Of a stretch of 12,563 nucleotides of DNA, positions 1,851 to 12,563 are shown piece by piece; the first letter of the stretch is position 1; each line of letters begins with the position of its first letter. Source of the stretch: Auxenochlorella pyrenoidosa (lineage: Eukaryota > Chlorophyta > Trebouxiophyceae > Chlorellales > Chlorellaceae); NCBI GenBank assembly GCA_001430745.1, contig KQ481969.1:382016-394578 (forward strand). The letters run 5' to 3'. The translations under genes were made by a program, and so were the position numbers. The notes under the pieces are model-generated. The model made no database searches and had not been told where the DNA came from. It saw only the letters and a list, made by a program, of their open reading frames with translations.

Positions 1851-3485
1851 ATGGCGGCGGCCGCAGACCTGGCGGGAGCGGCGGCTCTGCAGGCGGCAGC
1901 AGGTGCGCCAGGCTGCATGGCTGATGCTTCATCGCCTGCCCCTTTCTGTCTGGTAGAAGCGCAGGCAATCAATCAGTGTTGACAGACTGTGCTGCAGGCT
2001 CCATTTTGGCCAGTCGGCAACGAGGCGTGCAGGCTGCTACTGCCTACCTGTGTGCCGCTGCTGTGGCCTTGCTGGCGGGCAGCGGCGACTTGGCAACCTC
2101 GATTCAGAATGCGGCACTGTTGACTGCCGCCGCCGCTGCGCTGGCGCGTCGAGGCTCCCTGCCGTCGGCTGTGCTGCTGGCGGCAGGGAGCGCAGCCTGG
2201 CTGCCCGGTGCAGTGCTGCAGGCTGCGCCGCTTGCGCTGCTGGCAGCAACCAGGCAGCCCGGATCTGGGCCGGACGGCAGCGGCGGCAGCAGGGCTGTCA
2301 GTGGCAGCGCATGCGGAAGCGCCAGCACTTCTGCTGTGCAGGCCAGCGCTGTGGCGCGTCGCATCGCTGGCTACATGTGCTGCTTTGCAGCCACCGCAGC
2401 AGCACTAGCGCATGCCCAGCGGGCGCTGCCGCCAGGCCTGGCCGCAGCCGTGGGCCTGGCGGGTGGGCACGCCGCGGCGCCAGCTGTCTCCCCCGCTGAC
2501 CTGGCAGCCGATCCCCTGGCCTGGGTGGGCGCCCGCGTGGCGCAGCAGCCGCCGCACCTGGGCAGCGCCGCCGTGCTGCCTGCAGCCTCGCTGGAGCCCG
2601 GCCTGGGTCTCCAATGGTACCTGCTGGCCCAGACCTTTCCACAGTTCAGGTGCACCAGGGGGGCAGCAAAGTTACAACGGCTGGCGCTGCTGGAGGGGGC
2701 GGCTGGGCTGGCTCTCCGCGGCGCGGCTGCTCTGACGCAGGGCTGCGTAATGCCCACAGGGGCGGACCCAGCCGCATTGCCATGCTTGCACGAGCTCTGC
2801 CGGACACCTGCCCGGCGTCTGCAGCCGTCTGGGTGCCCACCCGGCTTCCCTGCCACTGCCCAAACGTTGAGCCGCGCGGCCTTCCCCTCCTCCCAACCAC
2901 CTGCAGGGCCTTTTTCCTGTACGTCCTGCGCTGGCTGCCCACGGCTCTCATGCTGCCGCTGGCAGTGCGGTTCCGCAACCAGCCGGGCCTGCTGCTGGTC
3001 GCTGGCGCGCTGGCGCGCTCCCTGCTGCACCCGCGGCCGCAGCTGGGCACCGCAGCGCTCTGGGTGGTGAGCCGGCTGGCTGGCTGTCTGGGGCTGTGGC
3101 ATTTCGAGTGTTTGTGAGCCTGGGCGCGCCACACGCGCCGCGCTTGCGCCCTGCTTCCGCAGCCTGCTGCCGACCCTCCTCCCCCGCACCTGCCATGTCC
3201 CGCTGCTGTACGCAGGGCCTGCTGCCGCTGGCGGGGCCCCACCTGGGGGCCATGCGTGGAGTGCTGCCCTGGCTGGGGCTGGGGCAGGCGGCGGCGACGC
3301 TGCTCAGCGCCTCGGCCGCCGGCCTGTGGCTGGGCGGCAGCGGCGGCAATGCAAACTTCCTCTACGGCATGAATCTGCTGTGGGCGGGGCTGCAGGCTGT
3401 GCTGCTGCTGCGCCTGCTGCGTGCCGCGGCTGCGGCGCAAGGGCCAGCCGCGCCAAAAAGCGCGGCGGCCGGGCAGAGCAGCTGA
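1851..3485 (+). CDS. PIGU: GPI transamidase subunit PIG-U (CDC91 homologue), N-terminus uncertain
   Basis: PIG-U is a multi-pass ER membrane subunit of GPI transamidase, which cleaves a C-terminal signal from proteins and attaches a preassembled GPI anchor. Exons: 1851-1902 (tentative), 1998-2649 (or from 1965; both acceptors keep phase), 2907-3066 and 3216-3485, stop TGA, about 377 aa. Family landmarks in order: the region after the second membrane span (GDLATSIQNAALL, where relatives have an STSPIEN-like motif); LQWYLLAQTFPQFR followed across the splice by AFFLYVLRWLP; PQLGTAALWV; and near the C-terminus GGNANFLYG, matching the conserved (S/T)GNANF(F/Y) segment. Hydrophobic helices alternate throughout. 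Later introns 2650-2906 and 3067-3215 are GT-AG and in phase. ATG 1851 (GGCCATGGCG) was chosen for its strong context; ATG 1821 is also in frame. The usual luminal N-terminal SPY.G segment was not found, so the 5' end is the weak part of the model. Confidence 0.82.
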
Positions 3486-3792: not shown

Positions 3793-5492
3793 ATGTCGGC
3801 AGCAGGCACAGTAGCCCGGCTAAGGGCCAGTTTTGAAGCGCCGCAGCTGCCCGGCCTAGGCGAGGGCGGCGCCGCCACGCCGGGCTCTGCGCCGGCCTCG
3901 CAGCAGCGCGTGAAGCAGATGCGGCTCTGGTCGGCCTTCCCCCTGGTGTCCAGCCCCAATGAAGGCGCGGGGCCAGCAGCTGCAACAGCAGCAGCAGCCG
4001 GCGGGGGCCTGGCTGCGCGGCAGCTGTGGCCGGTAGAGCAGCTCGCAGACGGCATGGCATGCGGCACAGACGATTGCTCGGAGCCGCTTGACGAGGCTGC
4101 GCGGGCTGCTCGCCTCGATAAGATCCGGGCTAGGTAAGGCGTGCAGCCAAGCCAGCTGCTGCGAGAGCCCGAGGAGTGTATTGGCCTGCCACGTGTGCGG
4201 GTCCATCAGATGCCGCAGCTAGCACGCATCGGATGCTGTCTGGCGCCGGCGCGCGGCTGCCGGACCCCCCCCCTTAGCATGCCCCGTCCAGAGCAAGGCT
4301 GCACCCACCTGCGGCCCCCCACCCCGTGTGTGCGTTGCCCGCAGGTTTGGCACGCGGGTCTTCCACGCCGCACGGGAGGTGCCGCCTGCGGAGCTGCGGC
4401 AGCAGCTGGGTGCAGCCGAATCGGACCTTCAAGAAGACGACTGTGAGCCCTTGCTGCCTGCTTGGCTGCTTTTATACTGAAATTATAAAGGAGTCTTAAT
4501 AAAAGGCTCCGTCCTATCCTCCTGCTGCCTGCGGGGCTGCTGCCGCGGCCGCCCCCCTGGCGCTTCGCTGTGCACCTGCTCCAGGCTGTGGCCCAGCAGA
4601 GCGCCTGCCTTCCTGTGCGGCCCCTGCAGCTTTTGATGCAGCCTGCGGCGCTTGCGACCTCCCCCCCAACAACACTTGTCCGTCCTCACCGCCTCTGCCT
4701 CCCCAACGCCCTCCCCCTGGCATGCAGACAGGCTGCTCCGCTGGGAGCCCATGCCGGTGCTGCTCAACAGCACCAGCAACTCGTACTGCCGAAACTTCGT
4801 GCTCAAGGGGCTGGTGAGCGCAGGCTGGTCGGGGGCTCGCCCACGTCCCGACTGCTCAGTCGTTACGGGCTGGCAGGGCCGGCAAGGCCTGCTGTTCTGA
4901 CATCCCAGCCTGCGCTGTGCTGCTCACGCCGGCCCCTGTGTGCCCTGCAGAGCGGCTGCGTGGGGCTGGCCTCCTCGCTGGCGCACCTGTTTGTGCTGGG
5001 GGCGGGGCAGACGATCTGGATAGCAGAGGCGGATGAGGTCGCTGCCGAGCCTCGGGAGCAGGAGGCAAGCGGGGGCAGTGTTTTGCTGTTGCAAGCGGGG
5101 GCAGTGTTTTGCTGTTGCAAGCAGGGGCAGCTTTTGCTGTTGCAAGCGGGGGCAGCCTTATCCTGTCGCCTCCGCTCCTGGTCTGGCCCCAACCCGCCCT
5201 GAGCTGTGCTGTGGGGGCTGGTGGGCACGCTGCAGGGCGGGCCGGTGCGCCTGAACGCAGTGCAAGACGTGCCGCGCCCCTGCGCCTTTACGCGGTGCCA
5301 GACGTGCCGCGTCCCTTCGCCGTCGCGCTGCAGGGCCTGTTCCTGCACTTTGGTGAGGGCAACTTCCTGACGCTGAGGACAGACGGTGCCAGCGCAGCCG
5401 CCATTGCAGCCGCCGTCAACACGCGGGCAGCCAGGCGGGCAGCGCTGCGACGGGCGGCGGGCGGCGCCGACAACGCCGGCACCTTGCAATAG
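3793..5492 (+). CDS. Unrecognised conserved-looking multi-exon protein with a frame-breaking duplication
   Basis: I do not recognise this protein. Exons 3793-4133, 4345-4442, 4728-4813 and 4951-about 5037 join in phase through introns GTAAGG...CCGCAG, GTGAGC...ATGCAG and GTGAGC...CTGCAG. The last exon begins near 5236 after CTGCAG and stops at TAG 5490-5492. The first 114 residues are Ala/Gly/Gln-rich. The rest looks like a folded domain: FGTRVFHAAREVPP, LLRWEPMPVLLNSTSNSYC, RNFVLKGL, a hydrophobic GLASSLAHLFVLGAGQTIWI stretch, then LFLHFGEGNFLTLRTDG near the end. The donor of exon 4 is weak (GTCGCT at 5038) and the following intron holds a minisatellite. Two diverged 35-bp copies at the start of the last exon put its two halves in different frames; with a single copy the spliced model would be 277 codons plus stop. 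It could be a pseudogene, an assembly error, or a gene with splicing I have not resolved. Confidence 0.55.
5065..5157 (+). repeat. 26-bp minisatellite, about 3.7 copies
   Basis: Units begin with GCAAGC at 5065, 5091, 5117 and 5142 (periods 26, 26, 25) and read roughly GCAAGCGGGGGCAGTGTTTT followed by GCTGTT. Because 26 is not a multiple of three, the array would scramble a coding frame, which supports placing it in the intron between the last two exons of the surrounding gene. Confidence 0.85.
5248..5317 (+). repeat. 35-bp imperfect tandem duplication inside the last exon
   Basis: Copy 1 (5248-5282) and copy 2 (5283-5317) match at 29 of 35 positions. Copy 1 encodes RLNAVQDVPRP in the frame set by the CTGCAG acceptor at 5235. 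Copy 2 encodes RLYAVPDVPRPFAVALQG in the frame of the rest of the exon. The 35-nt spacing is not a multiple of three, so the two copies cannot both be read in frame. Confidence 0.85.
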
Positions 5493-6366: not shown

Positions 6367-8342
6367 TCACGCCGCTGGCTGATGTGCAGCGGCGCTGTCC
6401 GGACACTGCTGCTCTTGCTGCTGCTGCTGCTGGGGCTGCTGCTGGTCGCCCTCCGCGCTGGCGGGAGGCTCCAGAGGGAAGATGACCCGCCGGGTGCTCT
6501 CCACTATTTCCAGGGCCTGGGCAACTTGCTTCTGCGGGGCACAGGGTATCATGAGGCGGTTAGAATGTGCAAGCCCGTGGGAGCGCCGCCACCCAGCGTG
6601 GGGACGGTACGAGGGCCAGGCTTGGACGGGGTGGGCGGCTGGCGGGCTGGCAGCCGGGCACACAGGTGACGGTAGTTAGCACGGCACGAGCGCAGGCAAG
6701 GCGATGCAGACCGCTACAGTGTGGTCCGCGAAGCAGCGCCTGCTCGGGCCTGTGTCGCAAGTTCCGTTGCGGATAGACAGACTGCTAAGCCCAAACAAGC
6801 AGCAGCGCCTGCTCCCGCGGCTCGGGCGGCCCTGCGGCGCACCTGCCCCACGCCCATCTGCTCCAAGGAATCCCGGAAGTGGCCCTTGATGAGGTCCAGG
6901 TGGATTTCCTTGAGGCCTGCGGGCAGCGACAGGCAGTTTGATGGCAACGAGGGGGCGGGAGCACGGTGTGCCGGCCGCCGCCCGTCCCAGCGGCTGGGCT
7001 GGAGCCGGCCTCCTTGCCAGCACCTCCCACCCACAGCCGTGCTGCATGGCGCGGAGCCGGAGCCGCGCCAGACAGCATCCCTGCAACGGCCTTGATGCTG
7101 CAGCCCCTGTATGTGGCAGCACACAGCCAGCGACAGCCAGCAGCCGCGCGCTCGCCTGCATGCTTGATGAGCCGCTCGTGCACGGCGTACAGCTGCGGCC
7201 ATGGGTCCGGCGCGTGCTCATAATCATCTGGGCCTGCAGCACCAGGGGGGCCCAGGGTCTGGCGCGTCGTTTCAGAGAGTGGGTTGGCAGGACGTAAGGC
7301 GCCTGCTTCGTTACACAGGGCGGAGCTGGCGACAGCGTGGCCGCATTTACCGGCGCCCTGAGCGGCTGCGTTCAGCTGGGACCGGCAGCGGGCGGGCAGG
7401 CACCTTCCGGCGCTGCCGCGCGCGTGCAGCCGGGCAGCGGGGCTGCTGGGGGCCAGGCCGGTGGGCGCACCTCCCATCACATAGGTGGCAAAGAGCAGGA
7501 ACTTGCGCCGGTGGGTGGCCATGTTGATGCCGTCGAAGAAGCGCGCAAGCTGCTCGTCGCCCAGCACCCGGCTGTAGAAGGCATCCACGATGCTCTGCAG
7601 GCAGAAAGGCATGGGAGCAAGACGAGCGGAGCCGGGGCGGCGGCTGTGAGGGTCGAGGACGCAGCAGCGCGGCATGCGGGTGCAGGCATGCATCGCGGCA
7701 GGCGCGCGCGGCAAGGGTGTGCGCATGCATCGCAGCAGGGGCCGCGCGGCATGCGGCGGCCGCGGAGCAGCGCGCGGCTGGCGGGCCCGTGCCCCAACCC
7801 GGGGCCATCTGTATTTAGGCTTCAAAAGAAGATGTAAAAAATAAACCTGAGTCGGCGCCGCCGGCAGAGCGCACCTTCATGACCACTCCGCCGCCGACTT
7901 GGTCGTACAGCGACAGCCCCAGCTCCTTCTCCTCCTCCTCCTCCTCGTAGCGCGCCATCAGCCCCTCAAACTCCTCGCACAGCGGCTCGGAGGAGGCGTG
8001 GCGAGACGCGCGCTGCGAAGAGCGGCGCGAGGAGCCGGGCTGCGCCGGGTCGCCACCCGACCCATACTCCTCGAGCAAAATCTCCCTCGTCAGCTCCCGG
8101 CTCAGCAGGTCCTCCTCCTCCGTGGCGTAGTCCGGGGCGCTGCAGAGGCTGTGCCCCCGGCTGGCCGTCAGCTGCTCCATCCCTGCCGTGTCGGTGCTGG
8201 CGGCGGAGGAGAGCGCCTCAGCGGAGAGGGCGCCGCTCGCCGCGCGCCCGCCGCTGGACAGCCCGCCCGCGGCGTCCCGCTGCTGCTGAAGAGAGTGTGG
8301 TGCGTCGAGGTGCTGAAACGGGCGCAAGCCAAGGCCGGCCAT
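6367..8342 (-). CDS. Truncated haemoglobin, group 1, with long N- and C-terminal extensions
   Basis: Five exons join in phase: 8342-7875, 7594-7471, 7233-7156, 6916-6843 and 6531-6367 (stop TGA), giving 302 aa. Residues 145 to about 265 form a 2-over-2 truncated globin: LYDQVGG (145-151), DAFYSRVL with B10 Tyr163, RFFDGINM with CD1 Phe176, the group 1 EF-loop GGP (197-199, created across a splice), proximal haem ligand F8 His216 in YAVHERLIKHAG, and the G/H helices HLDLIKGHFRDSLEQMGV and KQVAQALEIVE. Such proteins bind haem and O2/NO; in green algae they have been linked to NO handling, but this one's role is not shown. Distal residues are unusual: His184 at E7 and Phe188 at E11. The 144-residue N-terminal extension is Ser/Ala-rich, then acidic with a run of Glu; the C-terminus is Gln-rich. 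The start was chosen as the only in-frame ATG. The third intron has a GC donor. Confidence 0.9.
6406..6446 (-). repeat. CAG-type trinucleotide run encoding poly-Gln
   Basis: An interrupted CTG/CAG tract in the last haemoglobin exon is read on the minus strand as QQQPQQQQQQEQQ. It may be length-variable. Confidence 0.8.
7154..7155 (-). other. GC donor of a GC-AG intron (haemoglobin intron 3)
   Basis: Exon 3 ends GCATGCAG and the intron starts GCGAGC on the minus strand. Joining to the CCCGCAG acceptor at 6917-6918 restores ...IKHA-G-LKEIHLDL..., exactly where group 1 truncated globins continue. No GT donor nearby preserves both phase and homology, so a GC-AG intron (7155-6917) is the best reading. 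Confidence 0.8.
7925..7946 (-). repeat. GAG-type trinucleotide run encoding poly-Glu
   Basis: A CTC/GAG tract in the first haemoglobin exon is read on the minus strand as EEEEEEKEL just before the globin domain. It forms an acidic linker. Confidence 0.75.
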
Positions 8343-9234
8343 CACGCGAGCCTCTGCAGCTAACAGGGCAGCTAGTACTGAGTGAGCGGTGCAACCGCCG
8401 TGTTCGGCACCTGGCGATGGATGAGCTTGGCGGGGCTCGCCAGAGCAGCCCAAACCCTGATTCGAGCTTGCCTGCTACCAGCAGATGGGGTCGCGGCGCC
8501 CGGGAGCCCGGAGCTCTGGCTGAGGGCCCAGGAGGCCTCTGGCTCGCTCACGAGCGCTCGCTCCACCGCTGCGCTGCAAACAGCCGCTTTGCACCCGCGC
8601 TTGGCGGTGGCCTCAAGGCAGACGGCACGGCAAAGTGCAGGCAGACTTGCACAGGAAGCGGCGCTGATTGTGTTACCCAGGGTTAAAGAATCTGTTCATG
8701 CGGCCCATACGAGAAGCCTCACATGCGGCCCGGCCCACCCCAGCAGCCGCAGCGCGCCGACGCAAAAGGTGAGGCCGGTATTGCTTGCAAATGTGGGCCG
8801 GTTTTCGGCCAAGAAGAGAAAACTTTCAAGTGCTTTTTAGATTGGCATTGCATGAGGCATGGAAAAGGCCCTCCACATTGGTCAGCTCACGTGATGCTGG
8901 CACCAGCTGCAGTGGGGGAGCACGGTGGATGATGAAATACAACCCAAAGGGGCGCGCCAGCCCAGGCATGGAGCGAGAGCGGCGGTAAAGAATCAGGGTT
9001 CAGGATGAATGGGGAAGAATCAGGAATCAGGAAGGACGCGAGGTTCCGTGAGTGTCTGGAGCCCCATGGCAGGCATAGGCCATGCTGCATGTACAGTGCA
9101 GGCTCTCCAACCGGGCGCCACATGCAAGTGGAGTCTGTGCTGTCGTCGCCCTCCAGAAGGTATAGCGTGGGCCGGCGGAAGCCTGTCCTGGCAGCACAGG
9201 CGCGCACGCCATTTCCAAGCCACACTGCCCAAGC
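8343..9234 (-). other. Spacer between HAP2 3' end and haemoglobin start
   Basis: About 0.9 kb on the minus strand contains the HAP2 3' UTR and the promoter and 5' UTR of the haemoglobin gene. No clear TATA box or TTACA (reverse of TGTAA) was seen. A 152-codon plus-strand frame (8382-8840) resembles no protein I know. Three copies of GAATCAGG lie at 8990-9031. In frame with the haemoglobin start, the sequence stays open upstream to at least 8453, so a further 5' exon cannot be excluded. Confidence 0.5.
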
Positions 9235-12200
9235 TCAGCCGGGCCTGAGGGCTGACCTCGTGGCCTGGGGGGCCAGTCGGTGCGGCAGGGAGGGCGGAGC
9301 TTGCAGGGCGGCCACCGAGGAGGGCGGCGGCGCTGGCAGCGCGCCGGCAGGCGGCGCCAGCCCCTGCTGCCGCGCCTGCCGCAGGAACAGCACCTGCTGC
9401 TGCACCTGATGCAGCCGCTGCTGCATGCCCGCCACCGCGGCGCTGCTGCTGCCGCCGCCGGGCGGCGTGCCGGAGCTGCCTGCTGCTGGCGGCGCTGATA
9501 TGGCGCCTGCAGGGCCTGCTGCTGCTGGGACCGCGCCATGCGCCTGCTGCGCCAATTGCTGGGGCTGCTCCAGCCGTGTGCGCACAGCCGGAGGCGGCAC
9601 CGGCATGGCGCGTGGCGACGGGGGCAGCAGCATGGGCGGACAGTAGGCTGAGTGAGGCATCATGCTGCCTTGCAGCGGCAGCGCCAGCCGCGGGGAGCCG
9701 CCCGCAGCTGGCAACGCCCAATCGCCCGCAGCAGGTGCACCCTGCTGCGGCGGCAGCAGGGGCCCGGGGTGGAGGGCCGGGTAGCCCAGGGGGGGTGCGT
9801 ACGCCGCGTGGTGCGGGGGCAGGGCCATGTGCGGCTGCGTGTGCGGCAGCGGTGGCGGGTAAGTGGCGGGCTCGGGGGCCGGGACGGCCAGCGGGTTTAT
9901 CATGAAGTTTCGCAGGCCCGCCATCATGTCTCGGGCCTGCTGCGCAGCAGCCAAGAAGGACGCGCGCGCTCGCGCATAGCTGCTGGCCCGCCCGCGCTGC
10001 CCCTCTGCCAGCGGCTCGGCAGCCGCGGGCGCGTGCTTTGCGGCCAGCGGCCGCGCGACTTCGACGCTTGCGACGCTGCCGCCGCCGCCGCCGATGCTGC
10101 CGCTGCCTCGGCGGCGCGCCTGGCCCCACCACTGCTGCAGCGGTGGGTGGGCAGCGTGCCCCTGGCCCCGGTCTCCGGGCCGGCCGGCCCGGATGCGAGG
10201 GGACATTCCCGCCTCCTCCCCTTCCTCGTCGGCCAACTCGCTTGCAACCGCTTGCCGCCTGCCGCCGCCCTTGGTCTTGGCAGGCTGCGCGGGGGCGGCC
10301 GCCGCGGGCGCCGCGGGCCGGCAGAAGAGCAGCGACAGCAGGCGGAAGAGGATTGACAGGTAGCCGGAGCGCCAGGCCACCAGCAGGGCACCTATGCCGA
10401 GTGCTGGGCCCACTATGGTGGCGATCCCCTGCGGGGCGGTGCACAGGAAGCCAGGGGGGCAGGGGGGAGGGGAGTCAGGGGGTGGAGAGGGACGAGGGGT
10501 GAGGGCTGCCCATGCGGCAGTCCCATGCGGCAGCTCTGGCTGCTGCCCTGGCAGCCCCAGCGTGCAAAGCAAGCAGGGGTGGGGGCCAGGCGGCAGCAGG
10601 CGGGCGGCCCAGGCGCCACGTGCCCCGCCGGCAAACCCTGCTCTCTTGCACCCCTGCCAGCGGCACCACGCAGGTATGGTACATTGAAGAGACCCTCACA
10701 CAATGGGGAGCATGCACCACCCCGGGCATGCGGCACGCACCTTTGCCAGCTGCATCGCGCAGCCCTTGGCGGCTGCGCACTTGACGTTCAACATGTTTGG
10801 GCACACTTGCTTGCACCACTCGGAGTCGGAGGAGCTGCCGTTGCCTGGGCCGGTGACCTGCAGGGAAGGGGCGGGTCGCATGCCAGCACAGGTGTCGGAG
10901 GGCACGCGGGGCACGCGCATGCTCCTGGCACGGAGCGCGGTGGCATGGGCGCCGCTGCCAGGTAGGGTTGCAGGCCACAGGCTACGCTGCAGCGGCGCTC
11001 CCCCTGTCCTGTGCGAAAGAACACTCGGTGTGGACCTTGCCAGCCCACGCAGACCCGGCTGCGGGCCCCCACCTTGCCGCCCAGGTCGCTCTGATCGGGC
11101 ACGGTGCCATAGTCGGTGGCATTCGTGTAAAAGTAAAAGGCCTTGCTGGCGGCGCTGTCGCCGAGGGAGTCCCTCACCAGCACTGCAGGGGAGGCGGAAG
11201 GGGCGGGGCCCAGGGGGTGGGGGTGGCCCAGGGGGTGGGTGGGATAGGGTGGGGCTGAGGCGTGGGACGGAAGGCGTTGAGGCAGGGGCGAGGGCAGGCG
11301 CAGAGGCTGGGTGGTGGTCAGCCCCAGCCAACGCTGGGATGCCGCCATTCACGGGGAGAAGAGGCAGGGCAGCAGAGCGGAGGTGCGCGGGCGTGGCCAA
11401 GCCGCTGGGGCTAGGCACGCGCCCCGGCGGCGCTTCCAACTAGGCAAGCCGGAGGTGTGGAGCAACTTGGAGCGGCAGGGCGCGCCGCACCGGAGCAGCT
11501 GCTGTTGGTGGCCTGGTCTGTTTCCATATAGATGTCGAACTGGAAGCGGCGCGAGGACTGGGCCATGATGCCCGCCCGCTGCGCCTGCACAGCCAGGCCA
11601 GCAGGGCAGGGCGCTGCAGGGCGGCAGGCTGGGCGGCAGGCTGGGCATAAGTGCTGCCCCCGCCGCAACTTTGCCAGCCGCCGCTGCCACCAGGAATGCG
11701 AGCAGCACTGGCAAAGATCGCTTGCCGAAAGCTTTGGCAGGCCTGGCTGCTCGTGGCCCGGCTGGGCAGGCCTGGCGCCCGACAGGTGCTCACCACAATG
11801 GGGCGGATGCCCTCTGTGCAGTTCACCACCGTGACTGTGTAGTCTGAGGCGACATACCCTGTGTTCTTGACATCCACTGCAGAGGCGAGATGGGGAGGGC
11901 AGCGGGTCTGAGGAGCGCAAGATGCCAACGCACGGAAGGGCCTGTCCCTGTGCTCAAGCTCCCTACACTTGACGAGTTTGATGGGCGGAAGCTACGAGGG
12001 AAGCTCGGCAGCTTACCGAGCAGGTACCCACGCGTGGCCAGCGACTCAAAGCCGCCACAGAACTGGCCGTCAAAAGTGCACACCTGCGGGCGGAAGGCGA
12101 GAAGCCACAGGGCAGGGCGTGAGCTGTCAGAGAAGCAAGCGAGAAAGGGTGCAGCGCCCGTCCAATTCGCGGCTGCAGTGCGCCTCCAGCTGCGGCGCCC

Positions 12201-12563
12201 GCCACACACCAAGGCACAACGCATTGCAGGCGCGCGAGGCGCGTGATGCACAGTGGAAAGTCGCTGAGCCCGGCCTCGCAGTCGGGGTGCCCAGTTCAAG
12301 ACAGCACAAAGCAGGATGCGTGGGTGTGCCACAGCAGGCAAAGCAGGCGCAGCGGGCGCAGCGGGCGCAGCGGGCACAGCGGGCGCAGCGGGCACAGCGC
12401 GGCGCACCTGCACGCCCTCGATGGTTGCCGGCGAGCGCGACACCACATACTGCACATCGTCGGCTGCCACCGTGAGCGTCATCAGGCTGGTCTTGATGGC
12501 GGTGATGGGGAAGGAGAGGAAGAAGTCGAGGGTGCCCCTGCTGTTGGCGGTGGCGTTGAGCTG
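9235..12563 (-). CDS. HAP2: HAP2/GCS1 gamete membrane fusogen, C-terminal part, 5' partial
   Basis: HAP2 is the conserved class II-fold fusogen that merges gamete membranes in algae, plants and protists. Exons on the minus strand: 12563-12408, 12083-12017, 11876-11794, 11584-11491, 11182-11073, 10857-10741 and 10428-9235 (stop TGA), all joining in phase to 606 aa; the gene continues beyond the right edge. Family landmarks in order: MTLTVAADDVQYVVSRSP; VCTFDGQFCGGFESLATRGY; VDVKNTGYVASDYTVTVVNC and EGIRPI; FQFDIYMETDQA; SKAFYFYTNATDY; and a four-cysteine membrane-proximal segment (EWCKQVC...KC...GC). This order follows the Chlamydomonas HAP2 ectodomain closely. Visible ectodomain cysteines number eight and N-glycosylation sequons five (residues 3, 93, 129, 154, 176). 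The last exon opens with the transmembrane span (TIVGPALGIGALLVAW), a second hydrophobic stretch ending LLSLLFC, then a roughly 350-residue Pro/Ala/Gln-rich cytoplasmic tail. The fusion-loop domain must lie in exons outside the window. Confidence 0.93.
10440..10502 (-). other. Extended pyrimidine tract in the HAP2 intron before the transmembrane exon
   Basis: The plus strand is almost pure G with some A; on the transcribed strand this is a long C/T tract just upstream of the CCCCGCAG acceptor at 10429-10430. It is an unusually strong polypyrimidine tract and also G-quadruplex-prone on the template strand. Confidence 0.6.
11207..11239 (-). repeat. 15-bp direct repeat inside a HAP2 intron pyrimidine tract
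   Basis: GGCCCAGGGGGTGGG occurs at 11207-11221 and again at 11225-11239 (plus-strand reading, 18-bp spacing) within a G-rich stretch of about 11189-11270. On the gene strand it is C-rich and lies upstream of the CTGCAG acceptor at 11183-11184. Confidence 0.7.
12347..12400 (-). repeat. 9-bp minisatellite, six units, next to a HAP2 splice donor
   Basis: Six units of GCGCAGCGG or GCACAGCGG run from 12347 to 12400 with no gap. They sit in the first visible HAP2 intron, starting seven bases after its donor (GTGCGC, 12407-12402). Because nine is a multiple of three, the array stays open in the exon frame and would add an Ala/Pro/Val repeat if the intron were retained. Confidence 0.85.

What the first reader, a model, noticed from the sequence alone, without database searches (positions are those of the whole stretch)
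9235..12563. HAP2/GCS1 gamete fusogen in a Chlorella-type genome: evidence for cryptic sex
Seven exons join in phase and reproduce the conserved C-terminal half of the HAP2 ectodomain, with paired cysteines, five N-glycosylation sequons, a membrane span and a tail. HAP2 is known to be required for gamete fusion in Chlamydomonas, Arabidopsis, Plasmodium and Tetrahymena. If the host is, as it appears, a trebouxiophyte normally seen only dividing asexually, an undamaged fusogen implies recent selection for gamete fusion. No stop codon or frameshift is visible in the seven exons.
Basis: partly seen in the sequence, partly recalled or inferred. Interest (0 to 1): 0.85.

Follow-up and report, generated by a model that had tools for sequence, protein, structure and literature searches.

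The report
Micractinium gamete-fusion gene HAP2, ordinary ortholog
This stretch holds an apparently intact gene for HAP2, the protein that fuses gametes in many plants and protists, in a Chlorella-like green alga close to the genus Micractinium; such genes were already known in these algae, so it adds support to hidden sex but is not a surprise.

Summary
Seven minus-strand exons (window 12563-9235) join in phase and match HAP2/GCS1 (PF10699, E 5.7e-30; Chlamydomonas HAP2 structure, E 3.4e-33). Right of the window, past a 1926-base run of N, four more exons give the N-terminal part (profile 1-108, E 1.5e-9). The fusion-loop segment (profile 109-335) falls in the N run and cannot be read; two Micractinium relatives carry it. 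The 14 readable Chlamydomonas ectodomain cysteines are kept, the readable exons are open, and the ectodomain is better conserved than the tail, so decay is unlikely. The nearest proteins are Micractinium (92 and 88% identity), with PIG-U close by in all three. MND1, a HOP1-like HORMA gene and a SPO11/TOP6A-family gene are visible; DMC1, HOP2 and ZIP4 were not found, but 15754 of 24000 blindly sampled bases were N. HAP2 is in print for Chlorella, Auxenochlorella, Trebouxia, Picochlorum and Micractinium conductrix, and oogamy is recorded for M. pusillum. dN/dS and expression could not be tested.

The parts
12408..12563 (-). HAP2 exon, ectodomain (QLNATANSRG...IEGVQ); its 5' end runs into the N stretch right of the window
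   Evidence: gene model; 91% identity to P0002 residues 390-443
12017..12083 (-). HAP2 exon, ectodomain (VCTFDGQFCGGFESLATRGYLL)
   Evidence: AG acceptor, GT donor; both Cys columns invariant in the 7-row alignment A1
11794..11876 (-). HAP2 exon, ectodomain (VDVKNTGYVASDYTVTVVNCTEGIRPIV)
   Evidence: sequon NCT; aligned to 5mf1
11491..11584 (-). HAP2 exon, ectodomain (AQRAGIMAQSSRRFQFDIYMETDQATNSSCS)
   Evidence: sequon NSS; aligned to 5mf1
11073..11182 (-). HAP2 exon, end of the PDB-matched ectodomain (VLVRDSLGDS...DLGGK)
   Evidence: sequon NAT; last exon reached by the 5mf1 alignment
10741..10857 (-). HAP2 exon, membrane-proximal stem with four cysteines (VTGPGNGSSS...LAK)
   Evidence: PF10699 match extends to residue 203; four Cys shared with P0001, P0002, P0005
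9235..10428 (-). HAP2 last exon: membrane span (about 10428-10372) and a long Pro/Ala/Gln-rich tail, stop codon at 9237-9235
   Evidence: hydropathy maximum at residues 210-228; tail 64-66% identical to Micractinium relatives over aligned residues

Best explanation
This is the HAP2/GCS1 ortholog of an alga of, or very close to, the genus Micractinium, with one copy in what can be read. It encodes a secreted-and-anchored class II-type fusogen: hydrophobic leader, cysteine-rich ectodomain, stem, one membrane span, cytosolic tail. By homology, in gametes it would insert its fusion loops into the partner's membrane, trimerise and fold back to merge the two membranes (mechanism established for Chlamydomonas HAP2; inferred here). 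Shown here: family membership, open readable exons, conserved cysteines, kinship and neighbourhood shared with Micractinium. Inferred: the fusion-loop segment of this very genome, expression, and use in a sexual cycle.
For: PF10699 hits for both halves: C-half E 5.7e-30, profile 336-514; N-half E 1.5e-9, profile 1-108. Chlamydomonas HAP2 structures at E 3.4e-33 (C-half) and 2.9e-28 (N-half). Micractinium proteins at 92 and 88% identity (3 hits among 7996 scored candidates). In the own genome the 12 matches to the relative P0002 lie in one place, C17:391322-397486; 2 of the 12 rows hold one TGA each, both where the six-frame match runs past an exon end. 14 of 14 readable Chlamydomonas ectodomain cysteines are kept; the other 8 of 22 fall in the N run. 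Ectodomain identity 310 of 346 against tail 231 of 348 versus P0001 (Fisher p 8e-14), and 319 of 346 against 147 of 229 versus P0002 (p 1e-16). GC at codon position 3 is 0.84-0.86 against 0.48-0.49 at position 2 before the span. The predicted structure of the relative P0002 (mean pLDDT 68.5) has HAP2 structures as its best PDB matches (6dbs, E 1.0e-51). PIG-U lies about 6 kb from HAP2 here, and five and three locus tags away in the two relatives (ABPG77_000847/000852, ABPG75_004245/004242). Meiosis-related genes visible: MND1, HOP1-like HORMA, SPO11/TOP6A family.
Against: The fusion-loop segment is not readable in this genome (N run of 1926 bases). DMC1, HOP2/TBPIP and ZIP4/SPO22 were not found; the gene that matches the DMC1 profile along its length scores higher as RAD51. 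One of the three complete introns outside the window has a GC donor instead of GT. Against the more distant Chlorella sorokiniana protein the ectodomain/tail contrast is not significant (172 of 340 against 19 of 46, p 0.27; 323 tail residues unaligned). The predicted model of P0002 overlays the HAP2 structures only loosely as a whole (rmsd about 19-20, TM-score 0.57-0.61 by target). Nothing tests expression or function.
Confidence: 0.88

Rival explanations
1. A decaying pseudogene: sex was lost recently and the gene only looks intact because too little time has passed, or the damage lies in the unread fusion-loop segment.
For: The fusion-loop segment is N here; DMC1, HOP2 and ZIP4 not found.
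Against: 11 of 11 readable exons are open; cysteines kept 14 of 14; substitutions are rarer in the ectodomain than in the tail; both relatives are full length, with 200 of 222 residues identical to each other over the segment that is N here. Absence of other genes is uninformative, since 15754 of 24000 blindly sampled bases were N.
Confidence: 0.07
2. The gene is intact but kept for membrane fusion outside a classical sexual cycle, such as vegetative cell fusion without meiosis.
For: The meiotic set seen here is incomplete, and I found no record of sex for this strain, whose name I do not have.
Against: MND1 and a HOP1-like HORMA gene, both meiosis-specific by established knowledge, are visible; oogamy is recorded in M. 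pusillum (PMC8894098).
Confidence: 0.05
3. A contaminant or a wrong assembly join: the gene belongs to another organism than the rest of the contig.
For: The assembly is heavily gapped.
Against: The neighbour PIG-U independently finds Micractinium as nearest named relatives (78 and 66% identity) and lies near HAP2 in both.
Confidence: 0.01

Closest known systems
Micractinium sp. CCAP 211/92 ABPG77_000852 (P0002) and Micractinium tetrahymenae ABPG75_004242 (P0001)
   Same: Same domain order, the 18 readable ectodomain and stem cysteines, PIG-U near by; 92 and 88% identity to the C-half query
   Different: Tails differ (64-66% of aligned residues identical) and the CCAP 211/92 protein model lacks part of the tail
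Chlamydomonas reinhardtii HAP2 (PDB 5mf1, 6e18, 6dbs)
   Same: PF10699 family and cysteine pattern; the experimentally shown gamete fusogen
   Different: 43% identity to the window's protein in alignment A1; in the Micractinium relatives the stretch between the two fusion-loop cysteines is 10 residues instead of 19
HAP2 of Chlorella variabilis E1Z455, C. sorokiniana A0A2P6TVX6, Micractinium conductrix A0A2P6VMS5, Auxenochlorella protothecoides A0A1D2A410
   Same: Trebouxiophyte HAP2, listed and aligned in PMC6327110 (passages read)
   Different: These accessions were not fetched; P0005 (C. sorokiniana, 'generative cell specific-1') is 49% identical to the window's protein in alignment A1

Membership tests
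HAP2/GCS1 (PF10699) | Match to the family profile above the curated cut-off | tested here: met
   104.8 and 37.4 bits for the C- and N-halves, cut-off 27.4
HAP2/GCS1 (PF10699) | Conserved ectodomain cysteines | tested here: met
   14 of 14 readable Chlamydomonas cysteines aligned with Cys; 8 of 22 unreadable
HAP2/GCS1 (PF10699) | Single membrane span after the ectodomain | tested here: met
   Hydropathy maximum at residues 210-228 of the C-half
HAP2/GCS1 (PF10699) | Signal peptide | not tested
   A hydrophobic leader is seen by eye in the first exon; no predictor was run
HAP2/GCS1 (PF10699) | Fusion loop in domain II with conserved Arg before it | tested here: inconclusive
   Lies in the N run here; present in both Micractinium relatives (RANLDCGLFN[IL]KKSAHC)
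Class II fusogen fold | Ectodomain fold like the HAP2 structures | tested here: inconclusive
   Run only on the relative P0002, not on the window's protein: best matches 6dbs, 6e18, 5mf1 at E 1.0e-51 to 2.5e-41, but TM-score 0.57-0.61 by target and rmsd about 19-20; mean pLDDT 68.5
HAP2/GCS1 (PF10699) | Required for gamete fusion | not testable with these tools
   Needs genetics
Gene under purifying selection | dN/dS well below 1 | not tested
   No DNA of relatives was at hand; only the protein-level ectodomain/tail contrast

The most novel reading that the evidence does not exclude
This Micractinium has a working, rarely seen sexual cycle in which HAP2 with a shortened fusion loop (10 residues between the two cysteines, as in its relatives, instead of 19) fuses gametes, and HOP1, MND1 and SPO11 serve meiosis, possibly without DMC1.
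Probability: 0.15. Interest if true: 0.5.

Novelty: already known. Interest (0 to 1): 0.2.

Why it matters
It is one more open HAP2 gene in an alga rarely seen mating, close to a genus where sex (oogamy) is on record, which makes Micractinium a sensible place to try to induce and film mating. If mating can be induced, strains used in symbiosis and biotechnology work could be crossed.

Tried and rejected
The direct PF10699 search of the genome gave nothing, presumably because exons are matched singly; the relative's protein found the gene. DMC1 was sought with the NCBIfam profile (7 matches, 6 in one gene on C2 and one weak at C57, E 2.4e-4, not assigned) and with an Arabidopsis DMC1 sequence written from recall (5 matches, all in the C2 gene). 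The hand-joined C2 gene scores 473.6 bits as RAD51, just under that model's cut-off of 478.05, against 387.2 as DMC1. HOP2 and SPO22/ZIP4 gave nothing. I considered treating these absences as evidence of lost meiosis and rejected it: 15754 of 24000 bases in six blind 4-kb stretches were N (four stretches nearly or wholly N, two with none). The HORMA hit on C30 was set aside as MAD2-like; that is my reading of the sequence, and no call separates the two. One RAD21/REC8 locus was seen and not assigned. The SPO11/TOP6A-family gene matched only topoisomerase VI subunit A in the PDB (2zbk, E 8.4e-9), so SPO11 itself is not shown. The 12th genome search was not used; MSH4, MSH5, MER3 and GEX1 were not sought. 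dN/dS was not possible.

Full report
What is there. They lie on the minus strand, join in phase, use GT-AG introns, and end at a TGA at window 9237-9235. The 606 residues carry eight cysteines before a hydrophobic span at residues 210-228, five sequons, and a long Pro/Ala/Gln-rich tail. Pfam PF10699 (HAP2-GCS1) matches residues 13-203 at E 5.7e-30, and three Chlamydomonas HAP2 structures match at E 3.4e-33 to 2.9e-32.

Beyond the window. The window ends exactly where a 1926-base run of N begins. To the right of it, at window-equivalent positions 15480-15343, 15228-15116, 14982-14823 and 14650-14559, four further exons give 167 residues: start codon, hydrophobic leader and N-terminal part (one of the three complete introns has a GC donor). 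They match PF10699 profile positions 1-108 at E 1.5e-9 and Chlamydomonas HAP2 at E 2.9e-28. Profile positions 109-335, which include the fusion loop, are therefore in the N run and cannot be read. In the two Micractinium relatives this segment is 222 residues, with 200 of 222 identical between them, and holds RANLDCGLFN[IL]KKSAHC, 10 residues between the cysteines where Chlamydomonas has 19. Variation of the algal fusion loops is already noted in print (PMC6327110, passages read).

Whose gene. The protein search with the C-half returned three proteins among 7996 scored candidates; the two named ones are from Micractinium sp. CCAP 211/92 (92%) and M. tetrahymenae (88%). A search with the CCAP 211/92 protein returned 28. 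In a tree of the window's protein and 12 of those 28, the window groups with these two at 100/100, next to CCAP 211/92 at 89/90 (42% of columns filled for the window row; root at the midpoint). The neighbouring PIG-U gene returned seven proteins; the two named ones are again these two algae (78 and 66%), while P0031 (99%, no source given) is probably the window's own. Locus tags put PIG-U five and three numbers from HAP2 in the relatives, on contigs of the same lengths; here the two lie about 6 kb apart. So the host is a Micractinium or very close to it. The gene has one copy in what is readable: the 12 matches to P0002 fall in this place. No species name was obtained.

Is it alive? The 11 readable exons are open. 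The 14 readable cysteines of the Chlamydomonas ectodomain are kept, as are four stem cysteines shared with P0001, P0002 and P0005. Against P0001 the ectodomain is identical at 310 of 346 aligned residues and the tail at 231 of 348; against P0002, 319 of 346 and 147 of 229 (Fisher p 8e-14 and 1e-16). The tail is repetitive, its alignment is loose, and 21 and 140 tail residues were unaligned and left out of those counts, so the contrast is indicative. Against C. sorokiniana it is not significant (172 of 340 and 19 of 46, p 0.27). GC at the third codon position before the span is 0.84-0.86 against 0.48-0.49 at the second. This speaks for constraint on the ectodomain, but it is not a dN/dS test, which was impossible without relatives' DNA.

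Structure. An AlphaFold2 model of the relative P0002 (28-row alignment, mean pLDDT 68.5, pTM 0.58) has HAP2 structures as its first nine PDB matches, then archaeal Fsx1 and other class II fusogens. Whole-chain overlay is loose (TM-score 0.57-0.61 by target and rmsd about 19-20 for the Chlamydomonas chains), which may reflect a different arrangement of domains; that is inference. The window's own spliced protein was not modelled.

Other sex genes in the same genome. MND1 is present (profile hit E 8.5e-6; joined exons E 6.8e-27; Mnd1 structure 4y66 E 3.4e-17). A HOP1-like HORMA gene is present (first hit E 2.6e-4; joined exons E 4.4e-27; only PDB match HORMAD1 at E 8.2e-5). A SPO11/TOP6A-family gene is present (E 1.4e-4, 27.5 bits against a cut-off of 26; topoisomerase VI A E 8.4e-9); I read it as SPO11 from a recalled motif, which no call confirms. 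RWP-RK domains matched in four places, which are not assigned to any sex role. DMC1, HOP2 and SPO22/ZIP4 were not found. Since 15754 of 24000 bases in six blind stretches were N, none of these absences counts.

What is known. C. vulgaris has a HAP2-domain gene and meiosis genes (PMC6972661, passages). Auxenochlorella has HAP2 and GEX1 (PMC12636532, passages). Picochlorum SENEW3 has HAP2, with six other core genes reported missing (PMC11092101, passages). Trebouxia A48 has HAP2 and GEX1 (PMC12712428, passages). HAP2 of C. variabilis, C. sorokiniana, A. protothecoides and Micractinium conductrix was aligned in PMC6327110 (passages). 'Cryptic sex' is in the title of the C. variabilis genome paper of 2010, which is not held here; I saw it only in other papers' text and reference lists. 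A survey of 62 trebouxiophyte genomes reports the nine meiotic genes in the class (PMC12477308, passages). Oogamy is recorded for Micractinium pusillum, and the same source calls sex in the genus an open question (PMC8894098, passages).

Verdict. The inference to cryptic sex is reasonable but indirect, and was made for these algae long ago. The claim of an undamaged fusogen holds for everything readable, but not for the fusion loop itself, which is in an unread stretch.

Noticed in passing
window 1851-3485, + strand: PIG-U (GPI transamidase subunit, PF06728, E 4.2e-28), near HAP2 in both Micractinium relatives as well.
   Followed up: yes
window about 6367-8290, - strand: Truncated (bacterial-like) globin, PF01152 E 9e-17 on hand-joined exons, with a long acidic, serine-rich N-terminal extension; the start was not found.
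   Followed up: partly
window 5065-5160: Short tandem copies of a GC-rich unit (gcaagcgggggcagtgttttgctgtt), by my hand reading within an intron of a plus-strand gene whose joined peptide has no Pfam match; seen by eye.
   Followed up: no
G000 assembly; L003, L031, L034, L035 wholly N, L036 mostly N, L001:3330-5255: The 51.6 Mb assembly is largely N where sampled blindly (15754 of 24000 bases); the window ends where the N run on its right begins, and the 10 kb just left of it are N.
   Followed up: partly
G000:C2:2380442-2382242: The gene matching the DMC1 profile scores higher as RAD51 (473.6 against 387.2 bits); DMC1 was not found, although a survey reports it across trebouxiophyte orders (PMC12477308).
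   Followed up: partly
L001 about 6392-10000, - strand: Long coiled-coil-like, glutamine- and alanine-rich open frames just upstream of HAP2 in the same orientation; not identified.
   Followed up: no
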